Positions 2,911 to 26,886 of a DNA stretch of 34,453 nucleotides are shown here, piece by piece (position 1 is the stretch's first letter; every line of letters starts with the position of its first letter). This DNA is from a virus. A model generated the notes under the pieces. It was not told where the DNA came from. It saw nothing but the letters and a program-made list of their open reading frames with translations, and did not search any database. The stretch covers positions 1-34,453 of IMG/VR virus record IMGVR_UViG_3300042371_000154, one strand, 5' to 3'. Made by a program: the position numbers and the translations under genes.

Positions 2911-4137
2911 TCACCTTGCCATAGGCATCATAGTGACCACTGGCCGGGCCTTTGGCTTCTGCTGGACGTTAGCCCGCCGCGCACCTTCCAGAGCATAGCG
3001 CACCGCGTCGATCACATGGTTGTCGCGGTCATCCAGCACTGGCAGGATCTTGCCCGTCATCTGATCGGTCTTGAAACTATACAGCGTCAGTTCGTCAATC
3101 GTGTGCTTGCAGCGTGGATGCACAACGATGTCAAACGACTTCAGCCATTCAATGCCTTCCTCGACAGACTTCGCTCCCTTGACGGCTGATTGTATCTTGG
3201 GGAAGCCGTTCTTGCGCATGTGGCTGATTGTCTCGGGCCGTGCGCTGTCGGCCACCATTGGCCATTTCTCAGCCTCTGGAATGGACATGAACAGCGATGG
3301 CGTGTCCACGATCTCGCAGCCGACCTGATAAGCCTCATAGTCGATATATAGCTTGCGGCCTATGATGTGGCAGCGAACGCAGACTGTCGGATCAGATGCA
3401 AAGCCCCAATCCGCACCGAAACGATGGACAGCATCCGGCGGCGCGTCGAAGTCTTCAATCACCCAGTTCTTGAACACTCTGGTTTCGCTATTGCGAACAT
3501 ACTGACCCTTCCAGACGTGCAGATATTTATCTGGATCACGTCTGAGGTCGTATTGCATCTCATCCCGTAGCACGTCTGGAAACCACGGATTGTCGGAATA
3601 GTTGACCTCGACCACGATGCTGTCGGTTGGAGCGTTGCTTCCACGAAGTAATGATTCAACGGGATCGTCCTCATAGCGTGGGTTCCAACTGAACAGCAAC
3701 TGCGAGCCGGGCTTGCGGATTGTCGGGCGCAGTAGGTCCAAAGAAAACTGGCTGATCGACTGCGCTTCTTCCACCCAAGCGATGTCAAACCCTTCAAGCG
3801 ACTTGATGCTGTCGGCTGTGTGATTCTGCATCCCTTGAAAGATGATCACGCCACCGTGCGGGCATTTGATCTCAGCCTGCTGCACCTCAAACATATGGCC
3901 CACGCCAAGTTCCTGTATCTTGTTCTCAATCAGCTTCTTGACGGATTGTTTGAGAGACTTCTGCACCTCACGCACGCAGACCACATCTGTGCGTTTCATC
4001 ACGCAGCGCTCAACGATCCATTCCGCAAAGAAGGTTGACTTGCCAGAGCCGCGCCCACCGAATGCGCCGATGTAGCGGGCGTGTTCTTTCTTGAGGATTG
4101 GAACAGCCCAGCGCGGGGTGTTGATGTTTAGGTTCAT
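2911..4137 (-). CDS. terL: Terminase large subunit (packaging ATPase/nuclease)
   Basis: Motor that translocates DNA into the procapsid and cuts it at headful. 408 residues. Walker A GGRGSGKS lies at residues 27-34, the Walker B strand with catalytic acidics FDIAWVEE at 117-124, and a coupling motif LLFSWNP at 147-153. The C-terminal RNase H-like nuclease domain begins near FGADWGF, and a late acidic motif is DDRDNHVIDAVRYAL. The architecture and length fit the Terminase_3/XtmB group. The ATG overlaps the stop of the preceding 827-residue gene by four bases, so the two are translationally coupled. Unusually, terS is not its immediate neighbour. Confidence 0.96.
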   Translation of the reverse strand: MNLNINTPRWAVPILKKEHARYIGAFGGRGSGKSTFFAEWIVERCVMKRTDVVCVREVQKSLKQSVKKLIENKIQELGVGHMFEVQQAEIKCPHGGVIIFQGMQNHTADSIKSLEGFDIAWVEEAQSISQFSLDLLRPTIRKPGSQLLFSWNPRYEDDPVESLLRGSNAPTDSIVVEVNYSDNPWFPDVLRDEMQYDLRRDPDKYLHVWKGQYVRNSETRVFKNWVIEDFDAPPDAVHRFGADWGFASDPTVCVRCHIIGRKLYIDYEAYQVGCEIVDTPSLFMSIPEAEKWPMVADSARPETISHMRKNGFPKIQSAVKGAKSVEEGIEWLKSFDIVVHPRCKHTIDELTLYSFKTDQMTGKILPVLDDRDNHVIDAVRYALEGARRANVQQKPKARPVVTMMPMAR

Positions 4138-6617
4138 TTCCCAGTGTCACGCAACGTCTGCAATCCTAAGATTTGCTCTGCTGTGAGGCCTCGGTTTTTG
4201 AGTTGCTCAGGCGTAGATCCCAATATGCCTTTTGCAGTCTCTCTTGCCCTGCTGGAGAGATTTGCTCTGTTATCAACTCCAACCTCCCCTCGATCTCCGC
4301 GTCTGACACCGGGCGTTTCTTGTTGAACAGTCTCGTTAGAGATGCGTCCAACAGATCCTTCTGTCTCTGCGACAAATCCTTGAGTTTCGGCCCGATGGCT
4401 CGGCGCACCTGCTCCACGAATGCCTGCCGCTGTTGCTGCTCTGTCTGCATTGTTTCCACTCCACCGCATGACGATAACGGGCGGCATGCCCATGCTTTCG
4501 TCCCAACCATCTGACTTCCAAGCGTCAAGAAGGTCTTTATAATCCTGCTCACCGTGATCGGCAATATACATTTCTTTGTCGAATGGCACACGTCCGACCT
4601 CTTCGAAACCAAATTCCCCATAGTATTCTGGAAGATAACCATCAGGGAAACGTTTTGACGGCACAGCAAAAGCGTCAAGAACTGTTACACCATCTTCAAT
4701 GGCTTTTGCCATCACACTTGGTGCCGCTGTTCCCTTTGCGCCGGGTGCGTTGCTAACAACGCCGACCAAAGCCTTGTCATCCGGCATCATGTCAACACCA
4801 GCCCAAGAGTAGTCAGGCTTAGAGTCTATGGCAAAGAATACATCATCGTCGCCAAGCTGATAAGCCACAAGGTCGCCTGATTTTGCTCCGGCCTTGATGT
4901 CTTTTGCGGTGTAGCTTGTCAGGGCTGGGCGATATTTGCTGTTGGTAATAGCATCAACAAATGCCTGTGGAGAGGCACCTCCAGCATTAACTGGCTGGTT
5001 TGTTGGCTTCCATTTATTTAGCATAGAGTTCGTGACAATCCGCGTATCAATCGGCGACAGGCGCATAGCAGATCCCGCCGGGAACTGATTGCTACTTGAT
5101 TGCAATAGGCGCTCGAGGTCTCCAACTTGCTTTCCTGTCACCTCTTCAACTGGAAGCGACATGTCGAATGCTCGGCGCCCACCTTCATTGAACTCTTTGC
5201 CAAAAGCATCGATGTTCTTTTCGCCCCAAAATGTTGGGAACATTTCAAAGGTTGATATGTTCTGATCAAGTGCGCCAAAGACGCGACCTCTGATGCCATA
5301 TCTATAGCTTGGGTGAACTGGTAGGCCCTCTGCCAATAAGTCGACAGGCGGCGCACTGAAATCTGGCTCAATGAACAAAAGCGTGTCACGCGGGTTTGAC
5401 CCAGCGTAACGCGGATCAACTGTTTCCTGAAGAACTCTATTTACGTTTGGCAAGCCCTGTTCTTGCATGCCCTTGCTGCCAATGATGTCAGCAATCCTGC
5501 TACGCTCTGGAAAGCTTGCGCTATTGATAAACTCTTGGAGGTTTGGGCTACCAAAGCCGGGAAAGCGCTCAAGCCTAGCCAAAGCCGGATCTCCTCCCGT
5601 TGCCGATGTTCTCACCCTTGCATCAAGTTCACCCAAAACTTCACGCGGGATGCGTTGGTCTCTGACGTATGCACCAGTTGTCTTGATTAGTGAGTTGATG
5701 AAACTGATGTTTGATTTGTGACTTGTTGGGTTCATGGCTGTAACGGCGATCAGATCCGCACCAGATCCAGCCTTCTTTGTCCCAATGCTTTTGCCTTGAA
5801 CCGCCCATGCCAATCTTGCATCTTGGCTTGACTTCAATAGTGGATAGCCCGGGCCACCCATCATTGGCTCAGGCACATCAATCCTTGATGCGTCGATGCC
5901 CGTATAATAACCGCCAGCCCGCGTTAGATCCGCGACTGTTGGAATAATTCTCGCACCTTGCAAGTCAGATGGCGTAATGCGTGGGATGCTTGCCAGTGGC
6001 GCTTCCTGCATCGCCCGCTCGGCATCCGCAAACGTCACTGGCGGTCTACCAACATCGCCAGCAATTGGGTTGCTGTATAGGGTTGGCATAGGACCGGGCT
6101 GGGTTGCGCGGTCTACGATGGTCTGACGCAGTGGCGACCATCCAAGCAAACTTTCCATCAACGCTGTCGCAGCAGGCATTGCGGCTTTATAGGCAGCGGC
6201 AGCAGGTGCTGTGACGCCTGCCACACCCGACAACATGTTACCAAGCGCGGTGACTCGATCCCATCCCGCAGTCTCTGGCGCAAGCATTTGCTGCGATGCA
6301 GACATTGACTGACCGATTGCTTCAACCGGGTTTAACATTTGGTTGAAATTCCCCAGCGTTCCCACAATGCCAGTGCCGCTTAGGATGTTTGGCTCCGGCT
6401 GCGGTGCTGGTGGATTCGCTGCAATGGCTGCACGCTCTTGCGGCGTTGTCATCTCATACGCAAAGTTGGTTGGGAATCTCGCTTCTGACTTTGGCGCGTC
6501 AGGCATCACATACCGCGCACCATAGCCTGTTTGGTAAATGGTGCGGCCCATTTCATCCTTGCCAACTGGCGTGTCTTTGGCTGGGTTTGCGCCAGTAGGT
6601 AAGTCAAAAATGCCCAT
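4134..6617 (-). CDS. Large polyvalent-type protein inserted between terS and terL
   Basis: 827 residues from ATG 6617, chosen because GAGG lies six bases upstream (the open frame extends to 6671). The N-terminal ~150 residues include an Ala/Met/Gly-rich hydrophobic stretch like those in virion ejection proteins. The middle carries a motif of the type HPSYRYGIRGRVFGALDQ, which I associate with large phage polyvalent or internal virion proteins. Near residues 600-700, LVGVVSNAPGAKGTAAPSVM followed by GYLPEYYGEFGFEEVGRVPFD resembles an acetyltransferase-like fold. The C-terminus is charged and helical. I infer a multidomain protein that may travel with the DNA and act in the new host. The domain assignments come from memory of motifs and are tentative. 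The gene is coupled to terL by an ATGA overlap. Confidence 0.7.
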   Translation of the reverse strand: MGIFDLPTGANPAKDTPVGKDEMGRTIYQTGYGARYVMPDAPKSEARFPTNFAYEMTTPQERAAIAANPPAPQPEPNILSGTGIVGTLGNFNQMLNPVEAIGQSMSASQQMLAPETAGWDRVTALGNMLSGVAGVTAPAAAAYKAAMPAATALMESLLGWSPLRQTIVDRATQPGPMPTLYSNPIAGDVGRPPVTFADAERAMQEAPLASIPRITPSDLQGARIIPTVADLTRAGGYYTGIDASRIDVPEPMMGGPGYPLLKSSQDARLAWAVQGKSIGTKKAGSGADLIAVTAMNPTSHKSNISFINSLIKTTGAYVRDQRIPREVLGELDARVRTSATGGDPALARLERFPGFGSPNLQEFINSASFPERSRIADIIGSKGMQEQGLPNVNRVLQETVDPRYAGSNPRDTLLFIEPDFSAPPVDLLAEGLPVHPSYRYGIRGRVFGALDQNISTFEMFPTFWGEKNIDAFGKEFNEGGRRAFDMSLPVEEVTGKQVGDLERLLQSSSNQFPAGSAMRLSPIDTRIVTNSMLNKWKPTNQPVNAGGASPQAFVDAITNSKYRPALTSYTAKDIKAGAKSGDLVAYQLGDDDVFFAIDSKPDYSWAGVDMMPDDKALVGVVSNAPGAKGTAAPSVMAKAIEDGVTVLDAFAVPSKRFPDGYLPEYYGEFGFEEVGRVPFDKEMYIADHGEQDYKDLLDAWKSDGWDESMGMPPVIVMRWSGNNADRAATAAGIRGAGAPSHRAETQGFVAETEGSVGRISNETVQQETPGVRRGDRGEVGVDNRANLSSRARETAKGILGSTPEQLKNRGLTAEQILGLQTLRDTGK

Positions 6618-6618
6618 G

Positions 6619-7005
6619 TCACGCCTCTGATGGATCAATGATGGTCCGCTTGATCTCGATTGGTATTGCACCGCCTGATGGCCCAGACAGTTCCTGCTTC
6701 GTCGCGTCAGAGTAGCCGTGCTTGGACAGCATCATCTTGGTGATCGAGTAATTAAAGTCGCCAGACAGGCCATTATTCAGCAACTCCCGCTCTTGCTTTT
6801 GCGCGATTGCCTTGAGGATGTCGGAAAATTCTTTGTCCTTGTCCCGCGCCCAATCATGACAGGTCTCTCGGTGAATGCCAATTTCGCAAGCCAGACCCGC
6901 AACCGATGGCACCTTGTCACCTGCTGCGATCCACCCGCCTTTAGCATAATCCCAAGCAGCCTTGATGATCTCGGGTGTGTAATCAGTTGGTCTACCAGCA
7001 GCCAT
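6619..7005 (-). CDS. terS: Terminase small subunit / DNA-packaging protein (GP3_package-like)
   Basis: 128 residues from ATG 7005, which has GAGG five bases upstream. The opening GRPTDYTPEIIKAAWDYA, the HTH segment VPSVAGLACEIGIHRETCHDW, the helical DKEFSDILKAIAQKQERELL and SKHGYSD are hallmarks of the P22 gp3-like DNA-packaging family. It recognises the packaging start (pac) and recruits the large subunit. In P22 pac lies inside gene 3, so a pac site may be inside this gene, though I cannot point to it. The next gene downstream starts two bases after its stop and uses a Shine-Dalgarno inside its 3' end. It is followed by the 827-residue gene and not by terL. Confidence 0.9.
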   Translation of the reverse strand: MAAGRPTDYTPEIIKAAWDYAKGGWIAAGDKVPSVAGLACEIGIHRETCHDWARDKDKEFSDILKAIAQKQERELLNNGLSGDFNYSITKMMLSKHGYSDATKQELSGPSGGAIPIEIKRTIIDPSEA

Positions 7006-7055
7006 GACATCCTCATCTCGACACATAGCGGTGTCGGTCGCTGCGGCATCTTACA

Positions 7056-9945: not shown

Positions 9946-10956
9946 TCACATCACGCTTTCGACGAACGCTTGCGCTGCTTGGGCAACGATTGCATTGCCA
10001 TAACCGCGCAATCGTCCCACTCTGGCGGCAGCCCCATGAGCCAACGGGGATGTGCCGGGTTCAACTGGCCGCCACTTTCCATCGCGGCAGAAGAGCCAAT
10101 CAGCATCTCGCCAGTGGCCGTTAGTCGCGCTGGGCCGACCATCTTTGACATCTGCGTCAAGCTGGTTCCCGTCATTCCCGCTGTTATCCCAGACCCCGCT
10201 CTCTCCCCGTCCGATGCTGCTGCTGTCGGCCAACCCGATTTCTGCACCTCGAATGACAGCTTCATGCTGTGACCCGTTCCAGACGGAGCCAATCCGCTCT
10301 GCTTGCTGTCCTGCACAATTGGGGTTGTCCATCCTGCCATCCAGGCTTGCCTTGGAACTGTATCGTCCCGCAGTTGACCGCTCTGACGGTGCATCGACGT
10401 TTCCAAGTTGCCGCTGTCCTTGTGGTCCCGCGTTGTCGGCGTTGCCCAGCCGTGTTCCAACCCACCAGAGGCGCTGGCGGATATGCGGCGCACCGACGCC
10501 CGCAGCGCAGAGATCGACCGCCCCGCTGGCGTATCCCGTTTCTTCCAAGTCAGCGCATACAAGGTCGAGCCAAGCGAGGCCGTCTTTGCTTGCAACTTGC
10601 TCACCAAGGACAACGTCAGGTCGGCACTGGCTGATGAGGTGGTGGAAGGCTGGCCACAAGTGCCGCTCATCATCAAACCCTGCTCCTTTGCCTGCCGCGC
10701 TGAAAGGCTGGCACGGACATGATCCTGTCCATACAGGACGATCATCGGCCCATCCCGCTCGTCGCAGGGCGTAGGACCAGACACCAATTCCGGCGAAGAA
10801 GTGGCACTGAGTAAATCCAGCAAGTTCAGTTGGTGTGACATCTTCGATGCTCCGCTCGTCAACTACGCCATCAGCGATGTGACCCTGTTTGATTAATTCC
10901 CGCAGCCAAGCAGCGGCCTTTGGGTCATATTCGTTGTAATATGCGGCCATGCTCAT
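9946..10956 (-). CDS. DNA cytosine-5 methyltransferase
   Basis: 336 residues. Methylates cytosine C5 using S-adenosylmethionine. Motif I FFAGIG at 53-58 (cofactor), motif IV PCQPFS at 81-86 (catalytic Cys82), a motif VI variant GEQVAS at 118-123 (usually ENV), motif VIII GAPHIRQRLWWVG at 155-167 and motif X GYGNAI at 318-323. The target-recognition region (168-300) is Asn/Asp/Gly-rich with repeated motifs. No restriction partner is next to it, so it is probably a solitary enzyme protecting phage DNA or affecting regulation. Almost its whole 3' two-thirds is shared with a second open frame (9951-10841). The start overlaps the upstream stop. Confidence 0.9.
   Translation of the reverse strand: MSMAAYYNEYDPKAAAWLRELIKQGHIADGVVDERSIEDVTPTELAGFTQCHFFAGIGVWSYALRRAGWADDRPVWTGSCPCQPFSAAGKGAGFDDERHLWPAFHHLISQCRPDVVLGEQVASKDGLAWLDLVCADLEETGYASGAVDLCAAGVGAPHIRQRLWWVGTRLGNADNAGPQGQRQLGNVDAPSERSTAGRYSSKASLDGRMDNPNCAGQQAERIGSVWNGSQHEAVIRGAEIGLADSSSIGRGESGVWDNSGNDGNQLDADVKDGRPSATNGHWRDADWLFCRDGKWRPVEPGTSPLAHGAAARVGRLRGYGNAIVAQAAQAFVESVM
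9951..10841 (-). CDS. Nested gene in a different frame of the methyltransferase (296 residues)
   Basis: A second long frame lies inside the methyltransferase gene. ATG 10841 has GGAG eight bases upstream. The protein carries three copies of a short motif: GWATPTTRDHKDSG (131-144), GWTTPIVQDSKQSG (170-183) and GWPTAAASDGERAG (203-216). It ends with NPAHPRWLMGLPPEWDDCA, a run I remember from many prophage proteins annotated as hypothetical or methyltransferase-associated. A separately known C-terminus in the second frame argues that both frames are translated. I cannot confirm the homologues here. It could still be a passenger frame carried along by conservation of the methyltransferase. Function unknown. 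Confidence 0.6.
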   Translation of the reverse strand: MSHQLNLLDLLSATSSPELVSGPTPCDERDGPMIVLYGQDHVRASLSARQAKEQGLMMSGTCGQPSTTSSASADLTLSLVSKLQAKTASLGSTLYALTWKKRDTPAGRSISALRASVRRISASASGGLEHGWATPTTRDHKDSGNLETSMHRQSGQLRDDTVPRQAWMAGWTTPIVQDSKQSGLAPSGTGHSMKLSFEVQKSGWPTAAASDGERAGSGITAGMTGTSLTQMSKMVGPARLTATGEMLIGSSAAMESGGQLNPAHPRWLMGLPPEWDDCAVMAMQSLPKQRKRSSKA

Positions 10957-22431: not shown

Positions 22432-24360
22432 TCATCGACGCGTTTCCGATTCGGATGCCTTCTGAGCATTTATTGCTGTGGTGAGACGCTTAAACAATTC
22501 CGCTTCTTCAGCACTTCCTGCTGCCACTTGCGGAATTTTCAAAAGAAGGTTTCTTACAGCGGCGCTTTCATATGCTCGAGCCAAGCCACCAATTGTTGCT
22601 CCGCTAACGACAGCTGCGCCTGCACCACCAAGAAGATCAGTCAATACAGCGGCGCCAATTATTGGAACAGCCTGAACACCTGTTGGTGGTGATACTGCAG
22701 CTTGGCCAGCGCGTTCTGTCATCTTGAGAGTGCGCACTAGACCCTCAACAGCTTTCAAGTCTTGCCCAGAGAAGAACACGCCAATTGGCGCGCCAAGACG
22801 CACAAGCTGGCGCTTGAACTGATCAGGACTGAGACTTTCGAACTCTCCGCCAATCTTTGTGAATGCCTCTTGGAGAATTGCTGTTCGGGCATTGCGCTTT
22901 CCATCAGCAGACAGGCCGCGATACAAAGCACGGATTTCGCTTGGCTTCGAACTGAACAGCAATGCCCTGACCGACTCAGGCGTTGCATCTCCCTTATCAA
23001 GAGCATTCCGCATCGCCCCAAGTTCAAGGTCGCCAACCATTGTCTTGAGTTGCTTGTTAGCCACTGACCATTTGTCAAAGTCCCGGCGCTGGCCGTTTGC
23101 CTTGATGAAATCACCCATGTCATCACGCAAAGGCCCATAGATGCGGCTTAACGCTTTTTCACCAGTGGAACGGATTGACGATAGTTCTGGGGATGTAAAC
23201 GCTGCGCCAATATCTTTGCGAAGCTGCTCGATGTTCGTGATCGGCTGACCGCGGGCTTCAGTGCGGACAGTGCCGTCAGGCAAAGTTACTTCCCGCGTTC
23301 CAGTGATAGCTTTCTTCCAATCCTCTAGCCTTGCAATGACAGGCTCATAAGCGCCTGAACGCAGGCCGCGCAGGCTGGCAATTTCATCATCAATTGCCTT
23401 AACCGTGCGCGTGACATCAACTGTGCCAACGTCCTTCAAACCTTCGATAACGTCTGTTTTCATGCCAGTGTATTTCGCAAGATCGGCAGATCGTTTGGCC
23501 AGAAGGTCTCGCGCCACACTTGAGATAATAGCATTGTCAGCCGCAGCCGTTTCAGCAACGCCATAGTTGCGCAGCAAGTCAACAGATGCGTCGATGCGCT
23601 CTTGCTGCTGTGCTGCCCTTGGCCCGCCCGTTCCTGCAATTGGGATCATTTCGCCAGTCCGTTGCAGCCATTTTCCAGCAAACGTAGATGGCTCTCGAAC
23701 ATCCGTTGTCATGACGCGAACGCCAGCCTGCTCTGCCTCTTTGATTGCGGCGGGTAAACCAGCTTGCGGTGCGGCCACGCCAAGACCAGCAGCACGGCCA
23801 CCAGCAAGGCCACCAGCCAGCGATGCTGCAATCTGGCCTACTGGTCCGGCACCCATCTCTGTAGCGGCCTGTGCGCCCAGCCCAGCGCCTCCACCAGCGA
23901 CAGTCTGCGCACCGGGCTGTGCGGCCATAATGTCTGCAACTGCTCGACCTGCACCTGTCATCAAGTTGGCCGCACCCCTTGCAAGGCCAGCCCCAACGCC
24001 AGCGCCTGTCATGCCTTCACCAATGGCACCAACAATGCGCTCTGTGATGCTTTCTGGTTCAGGCACGCCCGCAGATGTTAGGATGTCACGCACTTGTTGA
24101 CGCAGCGGAGCCACGTTTGGCAGCAGCGGCACAAGACCTTCTGAGCCAACAAGATAGTTTTGCGTTGCAGCCAGTGGATCGTAAAGCATGGCCGGGATGC
24201 TTGCTGCGCCCTGTGCCAAGGCACGCCCAGTCAGCCCAACCTGACGCGTTAGATCAGCCGTTAGATCAGGGCCAGATGTAACTTGAACAGCGACAGGTGG
24301 CGCATTCGCTTTAGCTGCTGCGGCTGCAATGGCATTCAGGTCAAGTGCTTCATTCGCCAT
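22432..24360 (-). CDS. Ejection (internal virion) protein, gp16-like
   Basis: 642 residues from ATG 24360, with AGAGGG six bases upstream, and 11 bases of overlap with the previous gene. Gly/Ala-rich hydrophobic stretches lie at ~110-200 (AGVGAGLARGAANLMTGAGR and similar) and near 575-600. The middle is charged and helical. It follows gp7- and gp20-like genes exactly as P22 gene 16 does (P22 gp16, 609 residues). It would be ejected ahead of DNA and help form the channel across the envelope. Assigned from composition and synteny. Confidence 0.8.
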   Translation of the reverse strand: MANEALDLNAIAAAAAKANAPPVAVQVTSGPDLTADLTRQVGLTGRALAQGAASIPAMLYDPLAATQNYLVGSEGLVPLLPNVAPLRQQVRDILTSAGVPEPESITERIVGAIGEGMTGAGVGAGLARGAANLMTGAGRAVADIMAAQPGAQTVAGGGAGLGAQAATEMGAGPVGQIAASLAGGLAGGRAAGLGVAAPQAGLPAAIKEAEQAGVRVMTTDVREPSTFAGKWLQRTGEMIPIAGTGGPRAAQQQERIDASVDLLRNYGVAETAAADNAIISSVARDLLAKRSADLAKYTGMKTDVIEGLKDVGTVDVTRTVKAIDDEIASLRGLRSGAYEPVIARLEDWKKAITGTREVTLPDGTVRTEARGQPITNIEQLRKDIGAAFTSPELSSIRSTGEKALSRIYGPLRDDMGDFIKANGQRRDFDKWSVANKQLKTMVGDLELGAMRNALDKGDATPESVRALLFSSKPSEIRALYRGLSADGKRNARTAILQEAFTKIGGEFESLSPDQFKRQLVRLGAPIGVFFSGQDLKAVEGLVRTLKMTERAGQAAVSPPTGVQAVPIIGAAVLTDLLGGAGAAVVSGATIGGLARAYESAAVRNLLLKIPQVAAGSAEEAELFKRLTTAINAQKASESETRR

Positions 24361-25660
24361 AAAGTGCCCTCTGCTCTGCGCTCATAATTCCCCACATTGC
24401 TTCAGGGGTTGTGCCATTTTTTGTTGCGGCATTAATGACTGCTTGGCTGCTCAGGAAACTTTGCGGTATTGCACCAGCCGCGCCTTCTGTAGCCGCACGC
24501 GCACCGAAAACGTTGACTGGATTAAGCCCATAGTTTTCAACAATAGCTTGATAGCTTTGCTGAACTCCCTGTTCTTGAACTCGCGCAGCATCAAGGAACT
24601 TGCGCGAAAGATTCTGAAATTCAGTGCGCTGCTCTGCACTAAGAAACTGGCCGCTTTCCACTTTTGTAGCCAGCGATTGAAGACGCCCAAGCAAGCCACC
24701 AGCATTTGCGGCAGTTGCAAATTCTGTCTCACGAACAACAGAGCCGGGATCAAGCATCTTCATGAACGATGTGACAAGAGCGATGTCGCCAGCGCCAGTA
24801 TTATCTGCGGCAGATGTCTCAATGATTGATTGGTTACGTTCGGCAGCAGTCAAATCCTCTGTGCGCTTGCTATATTCCCCACGCAGACGCGCCTCTTCGG
24901 CCACCTTATCTTTAAGAGTTAGACCACCTTCAGCATTCATTCTGTCTAACTTTATAGCTGAATCCAGAACTTCTTTAGGCAGAATGCCCCTGTTAACATC
25001 CTGTGCAAGTTTACCAAGTGGCGATGCGGCCTCTGCTGCCTTTGGCTGCGTTGCATCAAGAATGCTTTTCCAAACATCCGGCTTAATCGCATCCGCAGCC
25101 GTCATTGCAGATCCGATGCTGATTGCTGCCGCATACGGGTCCATCTCAATGATCTTGAGGTTTGCCCGGAGTTTCGCAGCTTCATCAGTGTTCCCAGAGT
25201 TATCTGCTGCTGTAATGCGCTCATTGAGCATCGTAACAGCGGCATCAGAATTTCCGCTCAACAGGCTTGTGACCAAGTTAATGCCGAATGCAGTTTGCTC
25301 TGCCCGCTTGGGTTCCGACATCGCATCAAAAGCTGTTTTGATCTCTGCTTGGTTAGCCGCATATTTGAGATTGAAGGCGTTCTGCATTTCGGGCGTCAGC
25401 GTTCCATTCGCTGCAGCATCGCGCAGAACCATCAGGTCTTGCTGATATGCCGCTGCTGCCGCCTGCTGCTGTGCTGCGGCTGCACGTTGCTCTGCCAAGG
25501 CTGTCTGCTGATCTGCGAAAGCCTGCTGCTGCATGGCCGCATTCTGCTGCTGGATTTGCATATCCTGACGCTGGGCAATGTCATTGCGCCCCATCGTGTA
25601 GCCCTTGATGGCTTCCTCAATGGGGTTCTTTACGTCGAGGATGTAGTTGATCGGTTCCAC
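24350..25660 (-). CDS. Ejection protein, gp20-like
   Basis: 436 residues starting at GTG 25660, which has GGGGGG seven bases upstream. Gln/Ala-rich coiled region at ~30-75. A C-terminal segment, DIALVTSFMKMLDPGSVVRE then TEFATAANAGG, is conserved in podophage internal proteins. Size is close to P22 gp20 (471) and it lies in the gp7-gp20-gp16 order. Forms part of the periplasmic ejection tunnel. Confidence 0.85.
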   Translation of the reverse strand: MEPINYILDVKNPIEEAIKGYTMGRNDIAQRQDMQIQQQNAAMQQQAFADQQTALAEQRAAAAQQQAAAAAYQQDLMVLRDAAANGTLTPEMQNAFNLKYAANQAEIKTAFDAMSEPKRAEQTAFGINLVTSLLSGNSDAAVTMLNERITAADNSGNTDEAAKLRANLKIIEMDPYAAAISIGSAMTAADAIKPDVWKSILDATQPKAAEAASPLGKLAQDVNRGILPKEVLDSAIKLDRMNAEGGLTLKDKVAEEARLRGEYSKRTEDLTAAERNQSIIETSAADNTGAGDIALVTSFMKMLDPGSVVRETEFATAANAGGLLGRLQSLATKVESGQFLSAEQRTEFQNLSRKFLDAARVQEQGVQQSYQAIVENYGLNPVNVFGARAATEGAAGAIPQSFLSSQAVINAATKNGTTPEAMWGIMSAEQRALYGE

Positions 25661-26341
25661 TTAGAAGCCCCCCAGCATTGCTTGATTGAATGTCAGAGGT
25701 GCTGTCGCGCCCTGTGGAGTGTAACCTTGATAAGCAGCACCGCGCCCCAAAAGGCCACCGATGCTACCGATTGCATTGCCCCAAGCCTGCCCAGATGCAA
25801 GCGTTCCACCAGCCTGTGCCGCGCCCTGCTGGGCCAGAAGGTTGGCAATGTTCGTGCCTGTCTGCATCCCAGCGGTTCCAACACCAGCCGCAGCGTTCTG
25901 ACCCATCGTTGATAGACCGCCAAGGCGATTGTATTGCTGCTCGATCAGCGACGATAGAACCTGTGGCCGGAACTGAGCCAAAGCGCCCTGAACATTCCCA
26001 CCGCGCAGGCCACCCGTAGCAGCTGCGCTTTGCAAGATACCTTGTTCGCCCTGCTGCACCAGCGCATTGAACTCTGGGCCTTGCTGCAAAGCGTTGATGG
26101 CCTTCTGCTGTGCTTCAGGGCCGCTGACGCCAATCAAAGCAGCTTGCTGACCCAGCGCGGTTGTGCCTGTGCCAACATATGGCTTCATCAGCACTTGCAG
26201 AGCGTCAAACTGGCGGCGTTGTTCATCAATGCCCTGTTGGGCAGATGCTGCCTGTTGACCCGATGCTTTCTTGGCTGCTCTAGATTGAATGACACCGCTG
26301 ACAACAGTGCTTCCGACGATGGCTGCTGCGACAAAACTCAT
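25661..26341 (-). CDS. Ejection protein, gp7-like
   Basis: 226 residues from ATG 26341. GGAGG lies nine bases upstream, and the ATGA overlap excludes the longer frame to 26410. Hydrophobic N-terminus (MSFVAAAIVGSTVVSGVIQS), then RAAKKASGQQAASAQQGIDE and RQFDALQVLMKPYVGTGTTA, the usual start of phage DNA-transfer proteins. Gln/Gly/Ala-rich rest. P22 gp7 is 229 residues. First of the three ejection proteins. Confidence 0.85.
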   Translation of the reverse strand: MSFVAAAIVGSTVVSGVIQSRAAKKASGQQAASAQQGIDEQRRQFDALQVLMKPYVGTGTTALGQQAALIGVSGPEAQQKAINALQQGPEFNALVQQGEQGILQSAAATGGLRGGNVQGALAQFRPQVLSSLIEQQYNRLGGLSTMGQNAAAGVGTAGMQTGTNIANLLAQQGAAQAGGTLASGQAWGNAIGSIGGLLGRGAAYQGYTPQGATAPLTFNQAMLGGF

Positions 26342-26886
26342 GCCACTTTTCCTCCAAGATATTCGTGAACAGCCAAGTCGATCTGGTGAATGCCCATCGT
26401 GTCTTTCCAATCTTCGCTTTTCTCAACGAACATGTCTTCCAACTTTTCAATGTCGGTTTCAGTCGTTGCATAGATATTCTGGAAGATCGTGTCCTCGATG
26501 ATGTAGGCAAACTTGCGACCGGGCTGGCCGATAAAGATGCATGGCCCCTCAATGACCTTAGCCTCGCCATTAACGATCACAGCCATCTTGCCTTTCAGCA
26601 TGATGTTTGTGTGTTCGCATTTATGAGCATGGCCCATGACATAAGTGCCAGCAGGCATGAACGATTCACGAATGTAGATGCCCGGTCCAAAGTGATGCTG
26701 AGTTGGGCAGTCCACTTGCTCATGGTTGAGCATCATGGACTCAATGCCATCCAGCATTGCGGGAACGTCTTGGATGGGCTGAACTTCACGCAACGGCTGA
26801 TCCACTTCGGATAGCGCCTGCTGGTGGGCCAATGTCTCAGCCCGCGCAGTATCGCAGATAATGGGCTTTTGGGCAAGGTTTGTCAT
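26338..26886 (-). CDS. Cupin-fold protein in the virion operon
   Basis: 182 residues. The cupin barrel runs about 65-145: IYIRESFMPAGTYVMGHAHK, then CEHTNIMLKGKMAVIVNGE and CIFIGQPGRKFAYIIEDTIF. His86, His88 and His92 give a metal site. A C-terminal acidic helix (EKLEDMFVEKSEDWKD) follows. Proteins of this kind occur beside ejection genes in many podophages, but no function is known to me. Overlaps both neighbours by ATGA. Could be structural, or an enzyme packaged with the DNA. Confidence 0.8.
   Translation of the reverse strand: MTNLAQKPIICDTARAETLAHQQALSEVDQPLREVQPIQDVPAMLDGIESMMLNHEQVDCPTQHHFGPGIYIRESFMPAGTYVMGHAHKCEHTNIMLKGKMAVIVNGEAKVIEGPCIFIGQPGRKFAYIIEDTIFQNIYATTETDIEKLEDMFVEKSEDWKDTMGIHQIDLAVHEYLGGKVA

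What the first reader, a model, noticed from the sequence alone, without database searches (positions are those of the whole stretch)
4134..6617. An 827-residue multidomain protein between terS and terL
Terminase genes are normally adjacent. Here a large protein with an Ala-rich N-terminus, polyvalent-type middle motifs and an acetyltransferase-like segment is coupled to terL. It may be an ejected effector against host defences, or part of the packaging machine.
Basis: partly seen in the sequence, partly recalled or inferred. Interest (0 to 1): 0.7.

Follow-up and report, generated by a model that had tools for sequence, protein, structure and literature searches.

The report
Swappable cargo gene between terminase genes
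A P22-like phage carries, between its two DNA-packaging genes, a swappable slot holding a two-domain protein (an uncharacterised domain plus an acetyltransferase) that related phages replace with other predicted host-attack enzymes or with nothing, which suggests a cargo protein carried in the virus particle and injected into the host.

Summary
Confirmed, with corrections. The gene is on the minus strand (ATG 6617, stop 4134, 827 aa), abuts terS and overlaps terL by ATGA. It is not packaging machinery: a contig with 98% identical TerL has terS joined directly to terL at the same ATG. In relatives the same slot holds other proteins: ART-PolyVal-like, LPD23, GNAT+ParB-like, a probable divergent domain A, or nothing. 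A TerL tree needs at least 10 gains or losses of the window's cargo type. The protein is modular: leader, carrier (76-206), a junction linker conserved at DNA level, domain A (213-498, no Pfam or clear PDB match), a GNAT-fold domain (524-724; best Z 11.5) and a tail. The A+GNAT pair recurs at 26-90% identity in unrelated phages, in late head/packaging/ejection genes wherever neighbours were annotated, once next to a T7-type internal virion protein, and in proteins carrying lysozyme or SLT domains; a related GNAT domain is fused to a MuF minor capsid protein. Best reading: a virion-borne, ejected polyvalent-type effector that acetylates a host target early in infection. Encapsidation, activity and target are inferred. 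Domain A looks weakly YTH/EVE-like by structure (Z about 6), unsupported by profiles.

The parts
4134..6617 (-). 827-aa cargo protein gene (ATG 6617, stop 4134-4136)
   Evidence: conserved under purifying selection
6393..6617 (-). N-terminal leader, residues 1-75 (one of several exchangeable leader types)
   Evidence: replaced in L003/L005/L007, L099/L102 and L011-L013
6000..6392 (-). carrier module, residues 76-206, shared ahead of different payloads
   Evidence: profile search: only in cargo-type proteins, duplicated in L017
6009..6050 (-). junction linker GRPPVTFADAERAM (residues 190-203)
   Evidence: found only in cargo ORFs; DNA identity 0.57-0.77 against 0.25-0.47 in the flanks further out
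5124..5981 (-). domain A (residues 213-498), uncharacterised alpha/beta domain
   Evidence: alignments A2/A6; AlphaFold2 pLDDT 90.5; only weak YTH/EVE-like matches
4446..5048 (-). domain B, GNAT-fold acetyltransferase (residues about 524-724)
   Evidence: model pLDDT 89.3; GNAT matches in PDB
4137..4397 (-). C-terminal tail (residues 741-827), low-confidence at its beginning in the model
   Evidence: present in close relatives
6619..7026 (-). terS (gp3-like small terminase), left border of the slot in gene order
   Evidence: PF16677 E 8.5e-24
2911..4137 (-). terL, right border of the slot in gene order, ATGA overlap with the cargo stop
   Evidence: PF04466 E 1.4e-34; junction compared

Best explanation
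The gene occupies an exchangeable cargo slot between terS and terL of a P22-like podovirus lineage. Its product is a modular polyvalent-type protein: leader plus carrier, then a domain A + GNAT payload. It is made late with the packaging genes by coupled translation, put into the virion near the ejection proteins, and enters the new host with the DNA, where the GNAT domain acetylates a host protein (a defence factor, RNA polymerase or the translation machinery are candidates) and domain A presumably recognises the target or adds a second activity. Shown: anatomy, GNAT fold, modularity, slot exchange, empty site, late-gene context. Inferred: encapsidation, ejection, acetyl transfer, target.
For: Slot exchange: among TerL at least 96.8% identical, cargo is A+GNAT, GNAT+ParB-like, probable divergent domain A, ART-like, LPD23, an unknown type, or absent; 18 state changes on the TerL tree, 10 for A+GNAT. 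Precise empty site in L095. Same A+GNAT pair in unrelated phages, with late genes at every locus whose neighbours were annotated: terL-portal (L010, L017, L036, L038), portal-coat (L041), beside a T7-type internal virion protein (L024). Fusions to SLT (L010) and phage lysozyme (L017); related GNAT domain fused to Phage_Mu_F (L087, E 1.1e-16; GNAT domain E 8e-7 on a 1e6 search space). GNAT fold: best Z 11.5, 146 residues, 3.2 A. Published pattern: phage polyvalent proteins lie near late virion genes, are often fused to MuF, and include GNATs next to ARTs (PMC5512222). Precedent for such a protein in podovirus virions: JC1 DarB-like gp69 by proteomics (PMC9144972).
Against: No proteomics for any homologue found; late location does not prove encapsidation. 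No Pfam GNAT or polyvalent domain is called in this protein; the acyl-CoA loop lacks a conserved Arg/Gln at the first motif position. Only one enzymatic domain is identified, so 'disparate activities' is not shown for this protein. The phage already has its own gp7-like and DNA-transfer ejection proteins, so a virion place for this one is assumed.
Confidence: 0.7

Rival explanations
1. A moron-type gene expressed late in the infected cell (not packaged), for example to block superinfection or help the current host stage, that merely sits in a recombination-prone slot of the late operon.
For: Patchy presence and rapid exchange are also typical of morons; no virion data.
Against: Fusions of the same payload to peptidoglycan-degrading domains and of a related GNAT domain to a MuF minor capsid protein, and a location beside an internal virion protein gene fit delivery with the particle better.
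Confidence: 0.2
2. A part of the packaging or head machinery, for example a TerS-TerL adaptor or a modifier of virion proteins.
For: Translational coupling to terL and position between the terminase genes.
Against: Relatives with TerL 98% identical have no such gene (L095) or an unrelated one; the module also sits beside quite different terminases (phrog_38) or away from the terminase genes.
Confidence: 0.05
3. An ejection-conduit protein (gp16/gp20-like) that has picked up catalytic domains and helps DNA entry itself.
For: Carrier module with raised Ala/Gly content; SLT/lysozyme fusions in relatives.
Against: Separate gp7-like and DNA-transfer proteins are present at 22432-26410; no transmembrane-like stretch; absent in relatives.
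Confidence: 0.05

Closest known systems
Polyvalent proteins of phages (Iyer et al. 2017, PMC5512222)
   Same: Large modular proteins near late virion genes; shuffled domains; GNAT, ART, ParB-like, LPD domains; MuF fusions
   Different: This protein has no described polyvalent domain; domain A is not in Pfam; the terS-terL slot with a shared carrier and junction linker was not found described in the papers searched
RimI-like GNATs of polyvalent proteins (same paper)
   Same: GNAT fold; RimI among the structural matches (Z 10.8); late-gene context
   Different: No Pfam acetyltransferase call; preceded by domain A in all complete relatives found, apart from the MuF fusions
MuF minor capsid proteins with C-terminal effector domains
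   Same: A related GNAT domain is the C-terminal part of a MuF protein (L087)
   Different: No MuF domain in the window protein
Rac, GNAT of phiKMV-like phages (PMC7552054), and AcrVA5 as cited there
   Same: Phage acetyltransferases acting on host targets (RNAP alpha cleavage; Cas12a)
   Different: Not known as parts of modular cargo proteins (own knowledge); homology to Rac was not tested here
P22 ejection proteins gp7, gp16, gp20
   Same: Proposed delivery route; same phage lineage
   Different: Separate homologues exist in this genome; no similarity detected

Membership tests
Phage polyvalent proteins | Encoded among late virion genes | tested here: met
Phage polyvalent proteins | Domains exchanged between architectures shared with other polyvalent proteins | tested here: met
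   A+GNAT on different N-termini, site-mates with LPD23 (E 3.7e-23) and ART-PolyVal (1.1e-6, just under cut-off)
Phage polyvalent proteins | Two or more domains of disparate activity in this polypeptide | tested here: inconclusive
   GNAT identified, domain A of unknown activity
Phage polyvalent proteins | Packaged in the virion and injected | not testable with these tools
   needs proteomics
GNAT superfamily | GNAT fold | tested here: met
   346 PDB chains at Z 8 or more; the 50 entries shown are nearly all GNAT-type enzymes; best Z 11.5
GNAT superfamily | Acyl-CoA loop motif (R/Q)xxGx(G/A) | tested here: inconclusive
   Alignment shows a GxxGxA-like loop, first position not R/Q in the window and variable in relatives
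GNAT superfamily | Acetyl transfer activity | not testable with these tools
   needs assay
YTH/EVE (PUA-like) base readers | Fold of domain A | tested here: inconclusive
   best Z 6.1 over 136 residues, no Foldseek hit below E 0.88
YTH/EVE (PUA-like) base readers | Sequence-profile relation to EVE | tested here: inconclusive
   hhalign against an EVE alignment: probability 1.5% or less; YTH profile not tried
Terminase complex component | Conserved with the terminase genes | tested here: not met
   absent or replaced in close relatives
P22-type ejection conduit proteins | Similarity to gp7/gp16/gp20 families | tested here: not met
   no PHROG or Pfam ejection family matched; those matches fall on proteins within 22432-26410

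The most novel reading that the evidence does not exclude
The terS-terL interval is a dedicated cargo bay with a standard carrier and a recombination linker, and its commonest payload is a two-part enzyme in which a PUA-like (YTH/EVE-type) domain A recognises a modified nucleic acid of a host defence or expression system and brings the GNAT to its target.
Probability: 0.1. Interest if true: 0.85.

Novelty: new variant of a known kind. Interest (0 to 1): 0.6.

Why it matters
If right, one defined locus in this podovirus lineage catalogues exchangeable injected effectors: whatever is found between terS and terL is a candidate, with natural empty-site controls. It also gives a defined carrier segment whose role in virion loading can be tested, and a conserved unannotated domain (A) that is regularly paired with a GNAT.

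Tried and rejected
Pfam, PHROGs, NCBIfam, PADLOC and PDB sequence searches on the protein gave nothing but a weak PHROG 2563 match. tblastn of the protein against phage and plasmid records found no full homologue in isolates; only weak GNAT matches in Streptomyces and Microbacterium phages and a weak domain A match in MW202879. Genome collection: one decayed copy on a MAG contig. An EVE relation of domain A by profile comparison was not supported. A lead to a 'structural protein' of Flavobacterium phage elemoC could not be followed to virion data. Literature searches for a gene described between terS and terL found none. Packaging-machine reading rejected on the empty site. Searches were errors (wrong coordinates or handles).

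Full report
The thing itself. The ORF lies on the minus strand, ATG 6617 to stop 4134, 827 aa. It starts one base after the terS stop and its stop overlaps the terL start as ATGA. The neighbours are P22-like: gp3-type TerS, TerL, P22-type portal, coat, gp4- and gp10-type tail proteins, a gp7-like protein and a DNA-transfer protein. Purifying selection over the core is strong (dN 0.07-0.39, dS 1.5 or more or saturated).

Modules. A search of viral contigs gave 20 loci. Residues from about 203 on are kept, while the N-terminus is replaced several times and the host ORF ranges from about 770 to 1548 aa in the nearer relatives and to 2223 aa in distant ones. With alignments as queries, the domain A + GNAT pair was found at 26-90% identity, and both domains occur together in every complete, unbroken ORF inspected apart from the MuF fusion. 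The carrier (76-206) precedes different payloads and is duplicated in L017 ahead of a second payload. A linker, GRPPVTFADAERAM, marks the junction; it was found only in cargo ORFs of the loci held, and some 45-50 bp are conserved at DNA level between flanks that are not. This looks like a homology block for module exchange; that use is inferred.

The slot. Searching with TerL and reading the gene upstream shows that contigs with TerL 77-100% identical carry at this place: domain A + GNAT (window, L002, L003, L011, L025 and others); a 490-aa protein with GNAT-like and ParB-like segments (L088; TerL 99.5%); 608-631-aa proteins with a probable divergent domain A (L089, L094, L102; hhalign probability 94%); an ART-PolyVal-like protein (L093); an LPD23 protein with an HEFQH motif (L097); GNAT with a 'ParB C-terminal domain' family match (L099); GNAT plus a segment read by eye as ART-like (L116, L118); a phrog_3170 protein (L121); unknown types (L098, L111); or nothing. 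The TerL tree needs 18 changes for 12 states, and 10 for A+GNAT, 7 of them forced by well supported branches. Labels partly rest on motif reading, and TerL itself may recombine, so the counts are approximate. In L095 (TerL 98%) terS runs into terL at the same ATG. The sampled TerL relatives under about 75% identity that could be read have a small gene of terS size, or another small gene, next to terL rather than a large cargo gene.

Context elsewhere. In unrelated phages the pair lies between terL and portal (L010, L017/L035, L036, L038), between portal and coat (L041), or beside an internal virion protein and tail fibre gene (L024). L010 carries an SLT domain, L017 a phage lysozyme domain. 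In L087 a related GNAT domain follows a Phage_Mu_F domain; Microbacterium phage UtzChips gp4, a VG15-like minor capsid protein, shows a weaker match.

Structure. The core model is confident (pLDDT 89.3, pTM 0.87). Residues 524-724 are a GNAT fold (Foldseek best E 4.8e-3, probability 1.0; aligner Z up to 11.5), with the conserved LPxYYxxFGF stretch. Domain A alone (pLDDT 90.5) has no Foldseek match in the PDB below E 0.88. The second-look aligner places YTH domains first (Z 6.1-4.8), then a 5hmC-specific endonuclease and EVE-type proteins (Z 4.0-3.6; that 2gbs and 1zce are EVE proteins is from memory). Z under 8 may mean only a common arrangement, and an EVE profile comparison gave nothing; it stays a lead.

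Mechanism. Polyvalent proteins are predicted, from domain content and late-gene context, to be packaged and injected (PMC5512222), and one large DarB-like protein was found by proteomics in a podovirus virion (PMC9144972). The present protein fits the context pattern, so the most likely mechanism is delivery with the genome and acetylation of a host target. Phage GNATs with host targets are known: Rac (PMC7552054) and AcrVA5 as cited there. No step after translation is shown here.

Noticed in passing
window 9946-10956 and 9951-10862 (-): A Dcm-type methyltransferase ORF contains a second 303-aa ORF in another frame of the same strand whose translation reads like a real protein; a possible overlapping gene.
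   Followed up: no
L087 6086-7255: A GNAT domain related to domain B is fused to the C-terminus of a Phage_Mu_F minor capsid protein.
   Followed up: yes
L017 4729-9375: 1548-aa protein with a lysozyme domain, two copies of the carrier module and two payloads, the second reading like an ART by eye.
   Followed up: partly
L042 about 3200-5083: A frameshifted, decayed copy of the module on a Pirellulaceae MAG contig.
   Followed up: partly
L117 1180-1692: Cargo ORF cut short at about 160 aa between terS and terL.
   Followed up: no
L121 3862-5361; C-termini of L039 and L082: A further domain matching phrog_3170 in L121 and L039 (read by eye in L082), with a conserved H-x-x-FGH stretch, recurs as cargo and after the A+GNAT pair.
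   Followed up: no
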